In this document: positions 13,551 through 20,835 of the stretch, piece by piece
Layout: the number at the start of each line of letters is the position of its first letter
Position numbering within the stretch: the stretch's first letter is position 1
DNA from: Melioribacter sp.
GTDB lineage: Bacteria > Bacteroidota > Ignavibacteria > Ignavibacteriales > Melioribacteraceae
Direction of reading: 5' to 3'
NCBI GenBank assembly: GCA_023250955.1
Contig: JAHEZQ010000012.1
Span: 1 to 64,000 of the forward strand
DNA: 64,000 nucleotides
The notes under the pieces: generated by a model
The model's input: only the letters and a program-made list of their open reading frames with translations
Databases searched by the model: none
Told to the model about the DNA's origin: nothing
Made by a program: the position numbers and the translations under genes

Positions 13551-15428
13551 ATGGGAATTACAGAAAAAATCAGAAAGAGAATTTTCATTTTCTTATTTAT
13601 TCCGATCCTCGTCGTAATTCCATTTTTTACCGATGATTTAACTCTCAAAATTATTTCCGGTGTTATACTTCTTGTTTACGCTGGCTTCATTATCTTTTTG
13701 CGCGATTCGATGAGAAGTAGTGCAGTTGATAATGATGTAGATTTGCAATCAGAACTTTTTGAAGAAGACGATGCAATTGTAAAAGACCGATATGAAACAG
13801 ATGCAGGTGAAGATTTCAAAATAATTTCTCCTACAAAAAATATTGAAGTAATTACAGCAGATAATTTCGCTACAAGCATTAACAGTGGTAATAAAAATCT
13901 TTTTAAACCTCCCGATTTTAAGCAGAATTTTGAAAAGATTGTTCACGAAGAGCTCCCGGAAGATGTTAATCATGATGAGCAATTCGGTTTTGTACTTGAA
14001 AAAATATTAAATGTAGTAAAAGATTCTTTTATGGCACACACTGCAGCTTTTTTCTGGTATAATAAAAACAGAAAACGGCTTACACTTGAACGTTATGTAA
14101 CAAGCTCATCACAAATAACACAACAAAAATTTGATCTCGAAGATGATATACTAGGAAAAATTGTTCAAAAAGAAGAACCTGAGTTGTTAACTGATATTTC
14201 TTCAAATGCTGAAATTGATGTAATAAGATATTACAGCGCTCCGCAAGGAATAAAGAGTTTTGTCGGTGTGCCATTATTCTATGGTAAATCATTAACAGGC
14301 ATTCTTGTTCTCGACTCTAAAGTAAATGATGCATTTGGAATTGAACAAGTGTATGCACTCGGCAGAATTGTCCGTGTCATTTCAATAATTATTACATTGT
14401 TTGAAGAAAAATTTTCCGAATCTCAAGCTGAGTTGAGATTAAATACTCTGCTCAATATGTTGAGTCACGATAAAAAGATTGAATCTGAGTCCGATCTTCA
14501 TAGAACTATTGAAAATGCTGTGCAGGGTTTAATGGATTGGGATTCATTTACCTTTGTTTCTTATTATCCGACGGAACAAAAATTCAAGACCTCAAAGATC
14601 ATAAACAAAACTTCGTTAAAGTATGTTGGTGAAAATTTAGAAGTTGATCTTTCCGGCACTTTGGTCGGCAAGGCTATATTAAGCGCTACTCCGGTAAAAA
14701 TTGATGATACTTCAATTTCGGAAATTCCGCGTTTTGCAAAAAGCGAAGATGTTAGTTTCGATGGCTCTTTTCTCGCAATTCCTTTAGTTCATGATGAACA
14801 AAACTTTGGAGTTCTATGTTTCGAAAGTTTGAAGAAAAATGTTTATTCGAATAATGAAGTTACTTTTATAAAGAATGCAACTAAAATATTTGCTTTCATA
14901 CTTCACTCATATTCAACAATAAGTGTTCTAAAAAGTTTGCTTTCGGTTGATGCCGAGACAAAAACTTTGAATTATGATTCGTTCCTCGAACGGTTTACGG
15001 TTGATCTTGTCCGCAGCAAGGAATTAGGAATTCAAGGTGCCATTGCAATGATTAAGATTGATGATTTCTTGGAACAAGATTCATTATTCGAAAGCGATCC
15101 GTTTCCAAAAATCGTTCGCGTAGTTTCACAAATCATCAAAGATGAAATGACACCATTAAATTTGATTGGGCGGTTAAGCCAAAAAGTTTTTGCTGTATAT
15201 TTTTTCAATATGTCTCCTAAAGATGTTTTTCTGTGGGCAGAAAAATTACGAATTAAAATTGCGCGCAAACCGATTGCCATAGTCTCAAAGCAAACAACAT
15301 TTACTGTTTCAATCGGAGTTGCTTCAACAACAAACAAAACCGATGTTCAAGAGATCTTAACTAATGCTGACCTTGCACTAAAAAAAGCCTTAGAAAAAGG
15401 CGGCAACACGGTAAAAAGTATCAACTAA
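13551..15428 (+). CDS. Membrane protein with two GAF domains and a degenerate GGDEF domain
   Basis: The 625-aa protein begins with two hydrophobic segments (about residues 12-50), then an acidic linker, a first GAF-like domain (about 155-285), a second (about 305-455), and a C-terminal GGDEF-family fold (about 465-625) that ends with the typical segment TVSIGVAS and NADLALKKALEKGGN. Where the catalytic GGDEF should stand the sequence reads RLSQKVF (R541 to F547), so diguanylate cyclase activity is unlikely. GAF domains bind small ligands or mediate dimerisation; a sensory or scaffolding role is inferred. It starts with ATG behind AAGGGCGG and precedes deoB by 16 nt. Confidence 0.8.
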   Translation: MGITEKIRKRIFIFLFIPILVVIPFFTDDLTLKIISGVILLVYAGFIIFLRDSMRSSAVDNDVDLQSELFEEDDAIVKDRYETDAGEDFKIISPTKNIEVITADNFATSINSGNKNLFKPPDFKQNFEKIVHEELPEDVNHDEQFGFVLEKILNVVKDSFMAHTAAFFWYNKNRKRLTLERYVTSSSQITQQKFDLEDDILGKIVQKEEPELLTDISSNAEIDVIRYYSAPQGIKSFVGVPLFYGKSLTGILVLDSKVNDAFGIEQVYALGRIVRVISIIITLFEEKFSESQAELRLNTLLNMLSHDKKIESESDLHRTIENAVQGLMDWDSFTFVSYYPTEQKFKTSKIINKTSLKYVGENLEVDLSGTLVGKAILSATPVKIDDTSISEIPRFAKSEDVSFDGSFLAIPLVHDEQNFGVLCFESLKKNVYSNNEVTFIKNATKIFAFILHSYSTISVLKSLLSVDAETKTLNYDSFLERFTVDLVRSKELGIQGAIAMIKIDDFLEQDSLFESDPFPKIVRVVSQIIKDEMTPLNLIGRLSQKVFAVYFFNMSPKDVFLWAEKLRIKIARKPIAIVSKQTTFTVSIGVASTTNKTDVQEILTNADLALKKALEKGGNTVKSIN

Positions 15429-15444
15429 CATTCGAAAGAATCCA

Positions 15445-16608
15445 GTGAACAATTTTTTTATTATAGTTCTCGATGGTGTCGGGATTGGTGAACTGCCCGA
15501 TGCAAAAAATTATTCGGACCAAGGTAGTAACACACTTGGCAATATGGCAAATCGTCTTGGCGGTTTGAATTTACCAACTCTTGAAAAATTTGGACTAGGA
15601 AATATTAATGCCATCCTTGGTATTAAAGCTCAAAATCAACCCTTAGCTTCATATGGAAAATTATCAGAGATTTCACCAGGAAAAGATTCTACTACCGGAC
15701 ATTGGGAATTGGGTGGACTAAAAGTAGAAATAGATTTTCCATTTTATCCGGATGGATTTCCGCAAGAACTTATCAATAGATTTTTAAATGCCACAAGTTT
15801 GAAAGGTATTCTCGGAAATTATGCTGCATCTGGCACTGAAATTATTAAAGACCTCGGTGCTGAACATGTAAAAACCGGCTATCCAATTGTTTATACTTCT
15901 GCCGATTCTGTTTTTCAAATTGCAGCGCACGAAGAAGTAATACCTCTGAATAAACTTTACGAAATTTGTACGATTGCACGTGAAAAAGTTTTAATTGGTA
16001 AAGACGCCGTTGGAAGAATTATTGCTAGACCATTCATTGGAAAGGAAGGAAATTTTACACGTACAACAAATCGAAAAGATTTTTCTCTTGATCCTCCTGC
16101 GCCAACAATATTGGATTTTTGCTTGAATGAAGGAATTGAAACTTATGCGATCGGGAAAGTGAATGACTTATTCAATTATCAAGGGATAAAGCATAAACTA
16201 AAAACAAAATCTAATCAAGAAGGAATTGAAAAAATAATTGAGACAGCAAAAAATGTAAAAGGATCATTCATTTTTACCAATCTTGTAGATTTTGATGTTT
16301 ACTACGGTCATCGAAACGATCCGGAAGGATTATACAACGCTCTAAAAGAATTTGATACACGGTTACCGGAGATCGTAAACTGTCTTGATGAAACAGATCG
16401 TTTAATACTAACAGCAGATCACGGAAATGACCCGACTGATATAAGTACGGATCATACGCGGGAATATGTGCCGCTACTCTATTATAGAAAAAATGTTCAT
16501 GGCAAGGATTTAGGTACACGAAAAACTTTTTCTGATGTTGCCCAAACTGTTGCACAATATTTTAAGATCAATAATGATTTGAAAGGGACAAGTTTTTTAA
16601 ATGAGTAA
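15445..16608 (+). CDS. deoB: Phosphopentomutase
   Basis: DeoB interconverts (deoxy)ribose 1-phosphate and 5-phosphate in nucleoside salvage. It belongs to the alkaline phosphatase superfamily with two Mn ions. The 387-aa protein has the N-terminal metal motif LDGVGIGELPDA (D10), the active-site segment PGKDSTTGHWE, and the C-terminal metal motifs TADHGNDP (D325, H326) and TDHTREYVPLL. Length is typical. The start is GTG at 15445. Its last 8 nt overlap the next ORF, so it appears to head the cluster that includes the BMC-P genes. Confidence 0.94.
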   Translation: MNNFFIIVLDGVGIGELPDAKNYSDQGSNTLGNMANRLGGLNLPTLEKFGLGNINAILGIKAQNQPLASYGKLSEISPGKDSTTGHWELGGLKVEIDFPFYPDGFPQELINRFLNATSLKGILGNYAASGTEIIKDLGAEHVKTGYPIVYTSADSVFQIAAHEEVIPLNKLYEICTIAREKVLIGKDAVGRIIARPFIGKEGNFTRTTNRKDFSLDPPAPTILDFCLNEGIETYAIGKVNDLFNYQGIKHKLKTKSNQEGIEKIIETAKNVKGSFIFTNLVDFDVYYGHRNDPEGLYNALKEFDTRLPEIVNCLDETDRLILTADHGNDPTDISTDHTREYVPLLYYRKNVHGKDLGTRKTFSDVAQTVAQYFKINNDLKGTSFLNE

Positions 16609-16795
16609 AGAAGAAATTAAAAAAAACACTACTACTGATTTAGCCAATGAAATCAAGAACAAAACACTATTCGTAAAAATTAAACTGTTACAATCATTAC
16701 CTGATGAAATAATTTACGACTTCTTAAATGGCAAAAGTGTTTTAAGTACAACAAATTTTAAAAATAAATTTCTCCCACATGCCGAACAAAATTGA
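16601..16795 (+). CDS. Small hypothetical protein, possible antitoxin partner of the PIN protein
   Basis: This 64-residue ORF overlaps the deoB stop by 8 nt and the following PIN-domain gene by 17 nt. It is Lys/Asn-rich and charged, with a predicted helical N-terminal half (KEEIKKNTTTDLANEIKNKT) and the segment VKIKLLQSLPDEIIYDFLNG. No family was recognised. Its size and overlap with a VapC-like gene are what one expects of an antitoxin, but it shows no clear VapB/AbrB or ribbon-helix-helix signature. The function is an inference from position only. Confidence 0.6.
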   Translation: MSKEEIKKNTTTDLANEIKNKTLFVKIKLLQSLPDEIIYDFLNGKSVLSTTNFKNKFLPHAEQN

Positions 16796-17171
16796 ATACT
16801 TGATTGACACAGATATATTTGTAGATCATCTTACCCAAAAAGATAATTCTGCTTTATCTGATCTTGAAATTGCGATGTCAACCGGAATGTGTTTCACTTC
16901 AGTAATACAAGCATCCGAATTATATTTTTATGCATCAGACCAGATAGAGAAAAAAGGTGTTGATTCAGTAATGCGTGCAATGAAAGTTTTAGGCATTCAT
17001 CCGAGATATAGTTTGACCATTTCAGTTTTTTTTAATAAAGTTGCGACCACACGTGACGCAATTGTTTGTTCTGTTGCAAAGAATAATAAACTTCCTATTT
17101 TTACAAACGATCGTTACAGATATAAAGAGAGCGGAATTAAAATAATTACATCATTAGAATTGAGAGGATGA
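16779..17171 (+). CDS. PIN-domain protein (VapC-like ribonuclease)
   Basis: PIN domains are Mg-dependent ribonucleases; many are toxins of VapBC systems. The 130-aa protein keeps the acidic catalytic set: D10/D12 in LIDTDIFVD, E47 in QASELYFYA, D93 in TTRDAIVCSVA, and D111 in FTNDRYRY. Length matches VapC. The start ATG at 16779 lies inside the preceding 64-aa ORF. The gene is followed after one base by a microcompartment pentamer gene, an unusual neighbour. It could be a toxin or a regulatory RNase; the catalytic residues suggest it is active. Confidence 0.82.
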   Translation: MPNKIEYLIDTDIFVDHLTQKDNSALSDLEIAMSTGMCFTSVIQASELYFYASDQIEKKGVDSVMRAMKVLGIHPRYSLTISVFFNKVATTRDAIVCSVAKNNKLPIFTNDRYRYKESGIKIITSLELRG

Positions 17172-17172
17172 A

Positions 17173-17472
17173 TTGATACTTGGTAAAGTTATTGGAACTG
17201 TATGGTCAACGCGTAAAGACGAAAATCTTGTAGGAGCCAAATTTTTAATTGTTCGTCACATTGATCTGGAATATAAACCGAAAGATGCAACTGTTATCGC
17301 AGTTGATTCTGTTGGTGCCGGAGTTGGTGAAATAGTAATTGTTGCACAAGGCAGTTCCGCCCGTCAAACAACATTTACCAAAAACAAACCAATAGATGCT
17401 GTGATTATGGCCATTGTTGATAAACTTGATATCTCAGTTAAAGAAAAACAAAAAGAAACCGTAGTTGTCTAA
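17173..17472 (+). CDS. Bacterial microcompartment pentamer-type shell protein 1 (EutN/CcmL family)
   Basis: BMC-P proteins form pentamers that cap the vertices of microcompartment shells. The 99-aa sequence starts MILGKVIGTVWSTRKDENLV and contains the family's key segment DSVGAGVGEIVIVAQGSSAR (residues 45-64). The start is TTG at 17173. The last nine residues are a charged tail absent from the second copy. It overlaps the next paralog by one base (TAATG). No BMC-H (hexamer) gene or encapsulated enzyme is seen in the window, so either the main shell operon is elsewhere or these proteins act alone. Confidence 0.9.
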   Translation: MILGKVIGTVWSTRKDENLVGAKFLIVRHIDLEYKPKDATVIAVDSVGAGVGEIVIVAQGSSARQTTFTKNKPIDAVIMAIVDKLDISVKEKQKETVVV

Positions 17473-17741
17473 TGCAGCTTGGAAAAATCATCGGAACAAT
17501 TTGGGCAACAAGAAAATACGAAGCTGTTACAGGTTATAAAATGCAATTTGTCCAGCCAATTAATTCTGAGGGCAAGAATATTGGAGAGCCGATCATAGCG
17601 TTAGATACAGTTGGAGCCGGTCCTGGAGAAATAATTTATTTTGTTACAGCAAGCGAAGCTGTTATTCCTCTTGATGTGGATATGGCTCCGGTTGATGCTT
17701 CAATCGTTGGAATAGTTGATTCAATTAATATAGAGTCCTAG
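17472..17741 (+). CDS. Bacterial microcompartment pentamer-type shell protein 2 (EutN/CcmL family)
   Basis: This second BMC-P paralog has 89 residues, with [20 protein letters not shown] at the N terminus and [20 protein letters not shown] (residues 44-63) in the core. It lacks the SSAR sequence of its neighbour at the position that normally follows the glycine-rich loop, so the two are diverged and probably not interchangeable. It is translationally coupled to the first copy and lies 14 nt before rpoD. A shell-vertex role is known for the family; the substrate and compartment are unknown. Confidence 0.9.
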
Positions 17742-17755
17742 CGGGAGATTTAATT

Positions 17756-18610
17756 TTGAAAATCACAAAACAATACACCAATAGAGAAAGTCAATCATTA
17801 GATAAATATCTTCAAGAAATTGGTAAAGTAGATCTATTAACACCGGATGAAGAAATTGAATTAGCAATAAGAATAAGAAAAAATGATTCGTTAGCATTGG
17901 AAAAATTAGTAAAAGCAAATTTACGTTTTGTTGTTTCGGTTGCTAAACAATATCAGAATCAAGGACTCTCGCTTGGCGATTTGATCAATGAAGGAAATTT
18001 AGGGTTGATCAAAGCCGCAAAAAGATTTGATGAAACACGCGGATTCAAATTTATTTCCTATGCTGTTTGGTGGATACGTCAATCTATTCTTCAAGCATTG
18101 GCTGAACAATCACGTATTGTTCGTCTACCATTAAATAGAGTTGGTGCATTGAACAAGATTGGTAAAGCTTATAGCAATCTTGAGCAAGAATATGAACGTG
18201 AACCGAATGCACACGAACTTGCACAAGAACTTGATATGGATATAAGTGAAGTTTCAGATACATTAAAAATTGCGGGACGTGCAGTCTCAATGGATGCTCC
18301 ATTTAATCAAGGTGAAGAAAACCGGCTTCTTGATATTCTTGAAAATGATGAACAGCCGTCGCCGGATTTCACTTTAATGTCGGAATCTCTTAGAAATGAA
18401 ATTGAACGGGCGCTTTCAACCCTTTCAGAAAGAGAAGCAGAAGTAATTAAGCTTTACTTTGGACTTAATAAAGAACATTCACTTACACTCGAAGAGATTG
18501 GTGAAAAATTTAATCTTACGCGCGAGCGCGTTCGTCAGATAAAAGAAAAAGCAATTAGAAGATTACGCCACGCATCTCGCAGTAAAAATCTAAGATCTTA
18601 CCTAGGTTGA
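17756..18610 (+). CDS. rpoD: Primary sigma-70 factor RpoD, short form
   Basis: RpoD directs RNA polymerase to housekeeping promoters. The 284-aa protein has region 1.2 ([20 protein letters not shown]), region 2 ([20 protein letters not shown], then [16 protein letters not shown]), region 3, and region 4.2 ([20 protein letters not shown]). Region 1.1 is missing, as is usual for Bacteroidota/Chlorobi primary sigma factors. The start is TTG at 17756 behind GGGAGA. It lies 14 nt after the BMC-P pair and overlaps the reading frame of the next gene. Confidence 0.94.
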
Positions 18611-18618
18611 TATTGCCT

Positions 18619-19329
18619 ATGAATATATTTTACAGATTTTTCAAAAAAATAATTTGTACAATTCTTGTATTTATGATCTTCAGCGGTTGTTCTTCCTCCT
18701 CAAGTTCACAAAGATTTAAGCAAAGTAAAGGTGAGAGAAACAGTAATTCAAATCCAAGATTCGAATCTACCGACACAACAAAACGATCTTCGCGTACGAA
18801 ACCTAAAAACGAAAGAATTGTTTTTAATGATTTACCTGCAGATACTTCAGAAGAATTTGATGAAATACCGGTTGAAGAAAACCCCGTTGATAAAACAAAT
18901 TTTGTAGCTCATTTTGAAAAATTAAAAACATTCAATGTTGCTCTTACACCACGTGAAAAAGTTTTGTTCGAAGTAATTAAATATTTAGAAACTCCTTACA
19001 AATACGGCGGCAACACACAAAAGGGAATGGATTGCTCAGCATTTACCTTACTGGTTTATCAAAATTCTCTTGCAATCGAAATTCCACGTTCTGCCCGTGA
19101 ACAATATTCTACTGGAGAAAAAGTTTCTCAGGATGAATTGAAATTTGGTGATCTGGTTTTCTTCAATACAACAAAACGCTCATTCCCCGGCCATGTTGGT
19201 ATTTATCTTGGTGAGAATCAATTTGTGCATGCAAGCCGGTCTTTGGGTGTTACGGTTTCCTCTCTTGAAGATGCTTATTACAAGAAACGATTTGTGGGTG
19301 CAAGACGTGTTGAAACAATAGCAGAATAA
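18619..19329 (+). CDS. NlpC/P60 family lipoprotein, putative cell-wall endopeptidase
   Basis: NlpC/P60 enzymes are papain-like cysteine peptidases that cut peptidoglycan stems. From ATG 18619 the protein is 236 aa with a lipoprotein signal ending MIFSGC (lipid Cys24), a Ser-rich charged linker to about residue 110, and a C-terminal NlpC/P60 domain with Cys139 (GMDCSAF) and His192 (PGHVGIYLG). The frame also opens at a TTG overlapping the rpoD stop (18607), but the ATG fits the signal peptide better. It probably acts on the periplasmic face of the outer or inner membrane. Confidence 0.88.
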   Translation: MNIFYRFFKKIICTILVFMIFSGCSSSSSSQRFKQSKGERNSNSNPRFESTDTTKRSSRTKPKNERIVFNDLPADTSEEFDEIPVEENPVDKTNFVAHFEKLKTFNVALTPREKVLFEVIKYLETPYKYGGNTQKGMDCSAFTLLVYQNSLAIEIPRSAREQYSTGEKVSQDELKFGDLVFFNTTKRSFPGHVGIYLGENQFVHASRSLGVTVSSLEDAYYKKRFVGARRVETIAE

Positions 19330-19443
19330 TAACACCATTATTTAGACCATTCTTTACCACTCAAATCTCACTAATAACTTCGTTGATAATAAAACCATAT
19401 TCTCTTAATTTGACAATGCAAACAAAAATCTATTGGAGTTAAA

Positions 19444-20835
19444 ATGGAATACAGAATTGAAACTGATACTATGGGAGAAATGAAAGTCCCGGTTGATAAG
19501 TATTATGGTGCACAGACTGCAAGATCGTTAATGAATTTTAAAATTGGAGGAGAGAGATTTCCTGCTGAGATGATACGGGCAATTGGTATTGTAAAAAAAG
19601 CTGCAGCAATCACAAACAATGAATTAGGTGCTTTACCTAAAGACAAACTTGATTTGATTGTAAAGGCAGCCGATGAAGTTATTGAAGGAAAATTGAATGA
19701 TCATTTTCCGTTGGTTGTTTGGCAAACCGGAAGCGGTACTCAGACAAACATGAATGCAAACGAAGTTATTTCCAACCGTGCTATTGAAATGGCGGGAGGA
19801 GTTATGGGAAGTAAAAAACCGATCCATCCTAATGATGATGTGAATAAAGCACAATCCACTAATGATGCTTTCCCGACATCAATCCATGTTGCAGCGGTTG
19901 AAGAAATTCACCGTAGATTAATTCCGATGGTAACAAAATTGCGCGATTCATTAGATGCAAAAGCAAAAGAGTTTAAAGACATAATTAAAATCGGCAGAAC
20001 ACATTTAATGGACGCAACTCCTCTTACCCTTGGTCATGAATTCTCCGGCTATGCGCAGCAATTAACAAACGGATTAGCACGCATCAGTGATTCATTAAAA
20101 AGATTATATGAAATTCCTCTAGGCGGAACTGCTGTCGGTACAGGATTAAATGCTCATCCGGATTATGCTGTAAAAGTTGCTGAAACAATTTCTAAGTTGA
20201 CCGGAAAACAATTCAAAACTGCACCGAATAAATTTGAAGCAATGGCTGCAAAAGATGCTTTAGTTGAAATAAGCGGAGTGTTAAAAACACTTGGTGCTTC
20301 GTTACTAAAAATATCAAATGATATCCGCTGGCTTGGTTCCGGACCAAGATGCGGAATTGGTGAAATCTCTTTACCTGAAAACGAACCCGGCAGTTCAATA
20401 ATGCCAGGGAAAGTAAATCCAACACAATCTGAAGCGATGACAATGGTTTGTGCGCAAGTATTTGGAAATGATGTAACTATAAACATTGCAGGTTCAAGTG
20501 GAAATTTTGAATTGAATGTATTTATGCCGGTTATAGCATTCAACGTTCTTCAATCCATAAAATTAATTGCTGATGCTTGTGAAAGTTTTAGTGAACACTG
20601 CGTTGAAGGTATTACAGCCAATGAAATCAATATCAAGAGACACCTCGAAAATTCATTAATGCTGGTTACTTCCTTAAATCCGGTAATTGGTTACGATAAT
20701 GCGGCAAAAGTTGCAAAGAAAGCTCACAAAGAAAACAAAACTTTGAAAGAAGCTGTACTTGAACTGGGTCTTTTATCAGCAGAAAAATTTGATGAAGTTG
20801 TTCGCCCAGAAAAAATGATTGGTACAAAAAAATAA
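19444..20835 (+). CDS. fumC: Class II fumarate hydratase
   Basis: FumC interconverts fumarate and malate in the TCA cycle without an iron-sulfur cluster. The 463-aa protein has the superfamily signature [17 protein letters not shown] (from about residue 316), [19 protein letters not shown], and [20 protein letters not shown], which together separate FumC from aspartase and argininosuccinate lyase. ATG start behind TTGGAG. It is monocistronic by spacing, with a palindrome just downstream. Confidence 0.94.

What the first reader, a model, noticed from the sequence alone, without database searches (positions are those of the whole stretch)
17173..17741. Two microcompartment vertex proteins next to a PIN RNase and rpoD, with no other shell genes
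Both genes carry the DSVGAG/DTVGAG-type BMC-P core and are coupled by overlap. BMC-P genes normally sit with BMC-H hexamer genes and the enzymes they enclose; none of these is in the window. They instead lie between a VapC-like gene and rpoD, downstream of deoB, which feeds deoxyribose phosphate metabolism. Either this is a satellite of a shell operon elsewhere, or BMC-P pentamers are used without a standard shell. The two copies also differ near the SSAR segment.
Basis: partly seen in the sequence, partly recalled or inferred. Interest (0 to 1): 0.62.

Follow-up and report, generated by a model that had tools for sequence, protein, structure and literature searches.

The report
Vertex proteins of a scattered microcompartment
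Two genes for the corner proteins of a bacterial protein-shelled compartment sit beside the main sigma-factor gene because, in these bacteria, the compartment's genes are scattered over several fixed housekeeping sites; this is a member of an already described kind of scattered compartment, not a shell-less use of corner proteins.

Summary
Window 17173-17472 (P1) and 17472-17741 (P2) are genuine BMC-P genes overlapping by one base, 14 nt before an rpoD-type sigma gene, with no other shell gene in the window. They are not orphans. The same genome encodes BMC-H x2 (C41), a PduT-like BMC-T beside a PduS/RnfC-like gene (C36), a third BMC-P before dprA (C54), a further BMC-P triplet (C42), and a CoA-acylating aldehyde dehydrogenase (C54) ending in a conserved encapsulation-peptide-like motif. 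Every fragment keeps its neighbours in relatives: P1-P2-rpoD in 78 of the 80 best named loci, P3-dprA, PduS-BMC-T and tandem BMC-H in 20/20 each. Across 149 class genomes, all 56 with BMC-P also have BMC-H/T; all 47 with close P1 orthologues have the dehydrogenase. This matches the 'FRAG' compartments reported in Ignavibacteriae by Sutter et al. 2021. Not found in the searchable literature: the deep lock of vertex genes to rpoD, and a Rho_N-like tail on the second BMC-H. Substrate unknown.

The parts
15445..16608 (+). deoB, phosphopentomutase; neighbour, not judged part of the compartment
   Evidence: NCBIfam deoB/PRK05362 above cut-off; deoB-rpoD adjacency exists without BMC-P
16601..16795 (+). 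64-aa ORF overlapping deoB and PIN; possible antitoxin-like partner of PIN
   Evidence: ORF; no family match; 70% identical in the nearest relative, weak elsewhere
16779..17171 (+). PIN-domain (VapC-like) gene; optional neighbour
   Evidence: PF01850 E 2.3e-7; detected in 44 of 80 loci
17173..17472 (+). BMC-P paralogue P1 (GSSAR type), shell vertex protein
   Evidence: PF03319 E 1.6e-32; PDB 5V74 E 2.6e-24; Foldseek to CcmL/GrpN
17472..17741 (+). BMC-P paralogue P2, shell vertex protein; start overlaps P1 stop by 1 nt
   Evidence: PF03319 E 1.4e-26; PDB 5V74 E 2.6e-12; Foldseek
17756..18610 (+). rpoD-type sigma-70 gene (regions 1.2-4, 284 aa), 14 nt downstream of P2
   Evidence: Pfam Sigma70 r1.2, r2, r3, r4; P1-P2-rpoD order in 78 of 80 loci

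Best explanation
P1 and P2 are two of the three conserved vertex (BMC-P) paralogues of one fragmented ('FRAG'-type) metabolosome. The shell genes are dispersed over separate, vertically inherited housekeeping neighbourhoods: P1-P2 with rpoD, P3 with dprA, two BMC-H between ruvX and ybbR, a PduT-like BMC-T after a PduS/RnfC-like gene. Pentamers of P1, P2 and P3 would cap the vertices of facets made of BMC-H and BMC-T. A CoA-acylating aldehyde dehydrogenase would be recruited by its C-terminal motif and oxidise an aldehyde inside. The PduS-like flavo/FeS protein and the Cys-bearing BMC-T would pass electrons out to recycle NAD+. Because P1-P2 are packed into the rpoD transcription unit, vertex supply is probably constitutive or growth-linked rather than induced by substrate. 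Shown by sequence: family membership, co-occurrence, gene order, the conserved C-terminal motif. Inferred: assembly into one shell, cargo entry, electron route, constitutive expression. Unknown: the aldehyde and its source.
For: Genome inventory: 6 BMC-P, 2 BMC-H and one two-domain BMC-T. Co-occurrence over 149 class genomes: 56/56 BMC-P genomes have PF00936, and P-less genomes have only three weak hits (Fisher p 7e-38, not corrected for phylogeny). 47/47 close-P1 genomes have the dehydrogenase, against 5 of the other 102, four of which carry other BMC-P. The C-terminus G[ST]GI[ST]E.EI.KII.EF is conserved in nearly all of 30 dehydrogenases after a variable linker. Synteny: P1-P2 before rpoD in all 30 best class loci and 78 of 80 named loci, with a P2-rpoD gap of at most 26 nt in 76 of 78; P3-dprA 20/20, PduS-BMC-T 20/20, tandem BMC-H 20/20. 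BMC-T is PduT-like (PDB 3NWG E 2e-53) and keeps the Cys that aligns with the PduT Cys in all 21 sequences. Sutter 2021 (PMC8217296) describes FRAG BMCs in Ignavibacteriae, in up to six locations, with a BMC-P triplet.
Against: No expression, proteomic or microscopy data. No PduL in the genome and no signature enzyme identified, so the pathway is incomplete on paper. A second BMC-P triplet (C42) means P1-P3 might not be the only vertices used. Outside the class the rpoD link is not universal: in 11 of 20 loci from other classes P1-P2 stay paired but rpoD is not beside them. Shared descent inflates the co-occurrence p-values. The synteny sample consists of the best matches to P1, not a random draw.
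Confidence: 0.86

Rival explanations
1. BMC-P pentamers used on their own, without a hexamer shell, as free pentameric proteins with another role.
For: No other shell gene on this contig; an unusual neighbourhood.
Against: All 56 BMC-P genomes in 149 also have BMC-H/T; the genome has BMC-H, BMC-T and a dehydrogenase with an encapsulation-peptide-like end.
Confidence: 0.03
2. A deoxyribose-phosphate compartment (like SPU types): deoB supplies deoxyribose 5-phosphate, an aldolase makes acetaldehyde, the dehydrogenase oxidises it.
For: deoB lies upstream of P1-P2 in 79/80 loci and stays near P1-P2 in 9 of 20 loci of other classes where rpoD is not adjacent; the dehydrogenase is nearest the acetylating acetaldehyde type (TIGR02518, 612.6 against a cut-off of 620.1).
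Against: deoB directly precedes rpoD in genomes without the BMC-P pair there; other loci have no deoB next to P1-P2; a DeoC-family gene is found in 145/149 genomes regardless of BMC, with only one weak match in this genome.
Confidence: 0.08
3. A class II aldolase compartment (PVM-like, fucose/rhamnose type): the aldolase 3.8 kb from P3 makes an aldehyde for the encapsulated dehydrogenase.
For: The aldolase lies in the P3-dprA-ddl neighbourhood in several families; PVM-like loci with a class II aldolase were reported in Melioribacter roseus (PMC4207490).
Against: Aldolase homologues occur in 79/149 genomes, many without BMC, and the FRAG genome G033 has none at that threshold; no encapsulation-peptide-like end seen on this genome's copy; the P3-dprA block of several families lacks it.
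Confidence: 0.18
4. The pair is functionally tied to its neighbours: a PIN RNase/BMC-P/sigma regulatory unit in which BMC-P modulates rpoD or the RNase.
For: Very tight packing with rpoD, including 4-nt overlaps in six loci.
Against: PIN not detected in 36/80 loci; rpoD not adjacent in 11/20 loci of other classes; P3, BMC-H and BMC-T lie next to unrelated housekeeping genes.
Confidence: 0.03

Closest known systems
FRAG BMCs (Sutter et al. 2021, PMC8217296)
   Same: Shell genes at several genomic locations, a BMC-P triplet in the consolidated set, mostly remote from enzyme genes, reported in Ignavibacteriae
   Different: Nothing in the anatomy contradicts it; the fixed anchoring to rpoD, dprA, ruvX-ybbR and PduS, and an unlinked dehydrogenase with a conserved C-terminal motif, were not found in the text searched (its supplements could not be read)
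Satellite / satellite-like BMC loci (Axen et al. 2014, PMC4207490)
   Same: Contiguous BMC-P genes alone; Melioribacter roseus was noted there with seven BMC-P genes over five loci
   Different: No main locus holding both BMC-H and BMC-P exists in this genome, so the strict definition of a satellite is not met
EutN/CcmL/GrpN vertex proteins (PF03319)
   Same: Full-length domain and fold
   Different: Scores are below the equivalog cut-offs of CcmL, EutN and CsoS4
Pdu metabolosome
   Same: PduS-like protein next to a PduT-like BMC-T with the aligned Cys; acylating aldehyde dehydrogenase
   Different: No PduL; no diol dehydratase seen beside the shell fragments (its absence genome-wide was not searched); genes dispersed

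Membership tests
BMC-P (PF03319) | Full-length EutN_CcmL domain above the curated cut-off | tested here: met
   112 and 93 bits against 25
BMC-P (PF03319) | Pentamer-type subunit fold | tested here: met
   Foldseek top hits are all pentamer subunits; models of moderate confidence
BMC-P (PF03319) | Assembles as a pentamer | not testable with these tools
   No oligomer modelled
FRAG BMC | Shell genes in several genomic locations without a defined locus | tested here: met
   C27, C36, C41, C42, C54; in the single-contig relative G113, P1-P2, BMC-H and P3 lie at 2.42, 2.32 and 0.88 Mb
FRAG BMC | BMC-P triplet of three different clades | tested here: inconclusive
   P1, P2 and P3 fall in three groups in a tree of 92 columns, P1 with support, P2 and P3 less cleanly because a long-branched C42 protein falls among each; Sutter's own colour-clade models were not available
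FRAG BMC | Taxon: Ignavibacteriae and relatives | tested here: met
   Nearest named matches are Melioribacter / Ignavibacteriales genomes
[quoted passage not shown]
   BMC-H only on C41, BMC-T only on C36, BMC-P only on C27, C42, C54
SPU BMC | DeoC/RpiB-type sugar phosphate enzymes in the BMC locus | tested here: not met
   None among the annotated neighbours of the shell fragments; DeoC-family genes are BMC-independent
PVM / PVM-like BMC | Class II aldolase in the BMC locus | tested here: inconclusive
   Aldolase 3.8 kb from P3 and another 4.7 kb from the C42 triplet, but not a strict companion of the shell
Metabolosome | CoA-acylating aldehyde dehydrogenase with an encapsulation peptide | tested here: met
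   (peptide judged by conservation and position; targeting not tested)
Metabolosome | Phosphotransacylase | tested here: inconclusive
   PduL type (PF06130) absent; the Pta type was not searched

The most novel reading that the evidence does not exclude
A 'housekeeping' microcompartment: constitutively made, its vertex supply locked to synthesis of the main sigma factor over a deep ancestry, and tethered to nucleic acid by a Rho_N-like tail on one of its two BMC-H proteins, which could position or partition it on the nucleoid.
Probability: 0.15. Interest if true: 0.66.

Novelty: new member of a known kind. Interest (0 to 1): 0.4.

Why it matters
FRAG compartments have no assigned function, partly because their genes are scattered. 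Fixing the parts list for the Ignavibacteria version (three BMC-P, two BMC-H, one PduT-like BMC-T, a PduS-like partner and one unlinked dehydrogenase with a conserved C-terminal motif) gives a cargo enzyme to assay and strains to test. The lock of vertex genes to rpoD suggests a compartment made all the time, unlike the usual substrate-induced ones.

Tried and rejected
Orphan pentamers: rejected by co-occurrence. deoB as functional partner: rejected as the main reading because deoB-rpoD adjacency exists without BMC-P and DeoC-family genes are near-universal. Class II aldolase as strict partner: not supported. Search of the own genome with the encapsulation-peptide consensus for further cargo found only the dehydrogenase itself; a 22-aa query is weak, so other cargo is not excluded. 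The tail of BMC-H2 against PDB sequences gave only chance fumarase hits. The viral contig scan found no relative. The promoter scan of 15200-19500 found no more sites than shuffled sequence, so it says nothing on promoters. Literature searches for rpoD-BMC-P linkage gave nothing relevant.

Full report
What is there. The window carries two BMC-P genes at 17173-17472 and 17472-17741 on the + strand, overlapping by one base, preceded directly by a PIN-domain gene (16779-17171) and followed after 14 nt by an RpoD-type sigma gene (17756-18610). Both proteins match PF03319 over its whole length, 112 and 93 bits against a cut-off of 25. Their nearest solved relative by sequence is the Haliangium ochraceum shell pentamer, and predicted models, though of moderate confidence, match pentamer subunits at the top of a fold search. 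No other shell gene lies in the window or on its contig.

The rest of the shell is in the genome. A search of the whole assembly (67 contigs, 100% complete) found six BMC-P genes: the pair, a triplet on C42, and one on C54 before dprA. It found two BMC-H genes between ruvX and ybbR on C41 and one two-domain BMC-T on C36, directly after a PduS/RnfC-like gene. The assembly is a draft, but in relative G113, a single contig, P1-P2 lie at 2.42 Mb, the BMC-H pair at 2.32 Mb and the third BMC-P at 0.88 Mb, so the scattering is not an assembly effect.

Co-occurrence. Over the same 149 genomes of the class, 56 have a BMC-P match and all 56 have PF00936; among the other 93 only three have weak PF00936 hits. 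The C54 aldehyde dehydrogenase is present in all 47 genomes with a close P1 orthologue and in five of the remaining 102, of which four carry some other BMC-P; the fifth, G042, has only a 44%-identical relative (Fisher tests, not corrected for shared descent). Nearly all of 30 such dehydrogenases end in the same short motif G[ST]GI[ST]E.EI.KII.EF after a linker that varies in length and sequence. That is what a C-terminal encapsulation peptide looks like; targeting itself is untested. The enzyme is closest to the acetylating acetaldehyde type, just under that model's cut-off.

Gene order. P1-P2 precede rpoD in all 30 best class loci and in 78 of the 80 best-matching loci from named genomes, which are Melioribacter, Stygiobacter and other Ignavibacteria; 335 candidate stretches encoded a relative in that collection and the best 80 were kept. 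The two exceptions are L198, whose contig ends before rpoD could be read, and L235, which has P1 and rpoD but no detectable P2. P1 and P2 abut or overlap in 43 of 79, and the P2-rpoD gap is at most 26 nt in 76 of 78, with 4-nt overlaps in six. The other fragments are just as fixed: P3 before dprA in 20 of 20, PduS-like before BMC-T in 20 of 20, the two BMC-H in tandem in 20 of 20, usually before ybbR. In 20 loci from other classes of the phylum P1-P2 are always paired; rpoD follows in 9, deoB lies upstream in 9 others, and neither in 2.

The neighbours are not partners. In rpoD loci without the BMC-P pair, deoB directly precedes rpoD (for example G130, G013, G096) and PIN genes also occur there. 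PIN was not detected in 36 of 80 loci with the pair. DeoC-family genes are found in 145 of 149 genomes. So the deoxyribose reading rests on a neighbour that does not follow the compartment.

How it likely works. Three BMC-P types, one plain BMC-H, one tailed BMC-H and a PduT-like BMC-T make a plausible complete shell. The BMC-T keeps the Cys that aligns with the PduT sequences; from general knowledge of PduT that residue holds an iron-sulphur cluster, and PduS is its redox partner. I infer aldehyde oxidation inside, with electrons leaving through BMC-T. The PduL-type phosphotransacylase is absent, so the fate of the acyl-CoA is open. The signature enzyme is unknown: a class II aldolase near P3 is a candidate, but homologues occur in many genomes without a BMC. 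Because the vertex genes are embedded in the rpoD unit, I infer constitutive or growth-linked expression; no expression data were available.

What is known. Sutter et al. 2021 (PMC8217296) named FRAG BMCs: shell genes in up to six locations, a BMC-P triplet, mostly remote from enzymes, found in Ignavibacteriae. Axen et al. 2014 (PMC4207490) had noted seven BMC-P genes over five loci in Melioribacter roseus. The find is therefore a member of a described kind. Not found in the held literature, whose supplements I could not read: the rpoD lock, the unlinked dehydrogenase as constant companion, and the tail on the second BMC-H. That tail ends in about 45 conserved residues, of which 7 of 15 members match Rho_N (best E 7.9e-6), the RNA-binding N-terminal region of Rho by general knowledge; its function here is unproven.

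Limits. All evidence is comparative. The synteny samples are best matches, not random draws. The tree of P1, P2 and P3 rests on 92 columns and places the C42 proteins poorly.

Noticed in passing
L011:9502-10406 (G000:C42): A second, adjacent BMC-P triplet with a class II aldolase 4.7 kb away (L011:3981-4754) but no hexamer gene of its own; seen in the same genus (G093, and likely G403) but not in most relatives. Possibly the remnant or the split part of a PVM-like compartment.
   Followed up: partly
L012:4112-4810 and orthologues in L165-L184: The second BMC-H carries a variable, mostly acidic linker and a conserved C-terminal domain of about 45 residues matching Rho_N in 7 of 15 members.
   Followed up: partly
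L020:1468-3060 (G000:C54): Acylating aldehyde dehydrogenase with a conserved encapsulation-peptide-like C-terminus, about 14 kb from the third BMC-P.
   Followed up: yes
window 16601-17171: A 64-aa ORF overlapping a PIN-domain gene, an arrangement reminiscent of VapBC toxin-antitoxin pairs; present only in part of the family.
   Followed up: partly
G085:C4:27635-29707: A relative with a compact BMC-P / aldehyde dehydrogenase / BMC-H cluster, by coordinates; possibly a different compartment type.
   Followed up: no
L235:4001-4453: A P1-rpoD locus in which P2 was not found, with about 177 nt between P1 and rpoD; P2 seems lost or broken.
   Followed up: no
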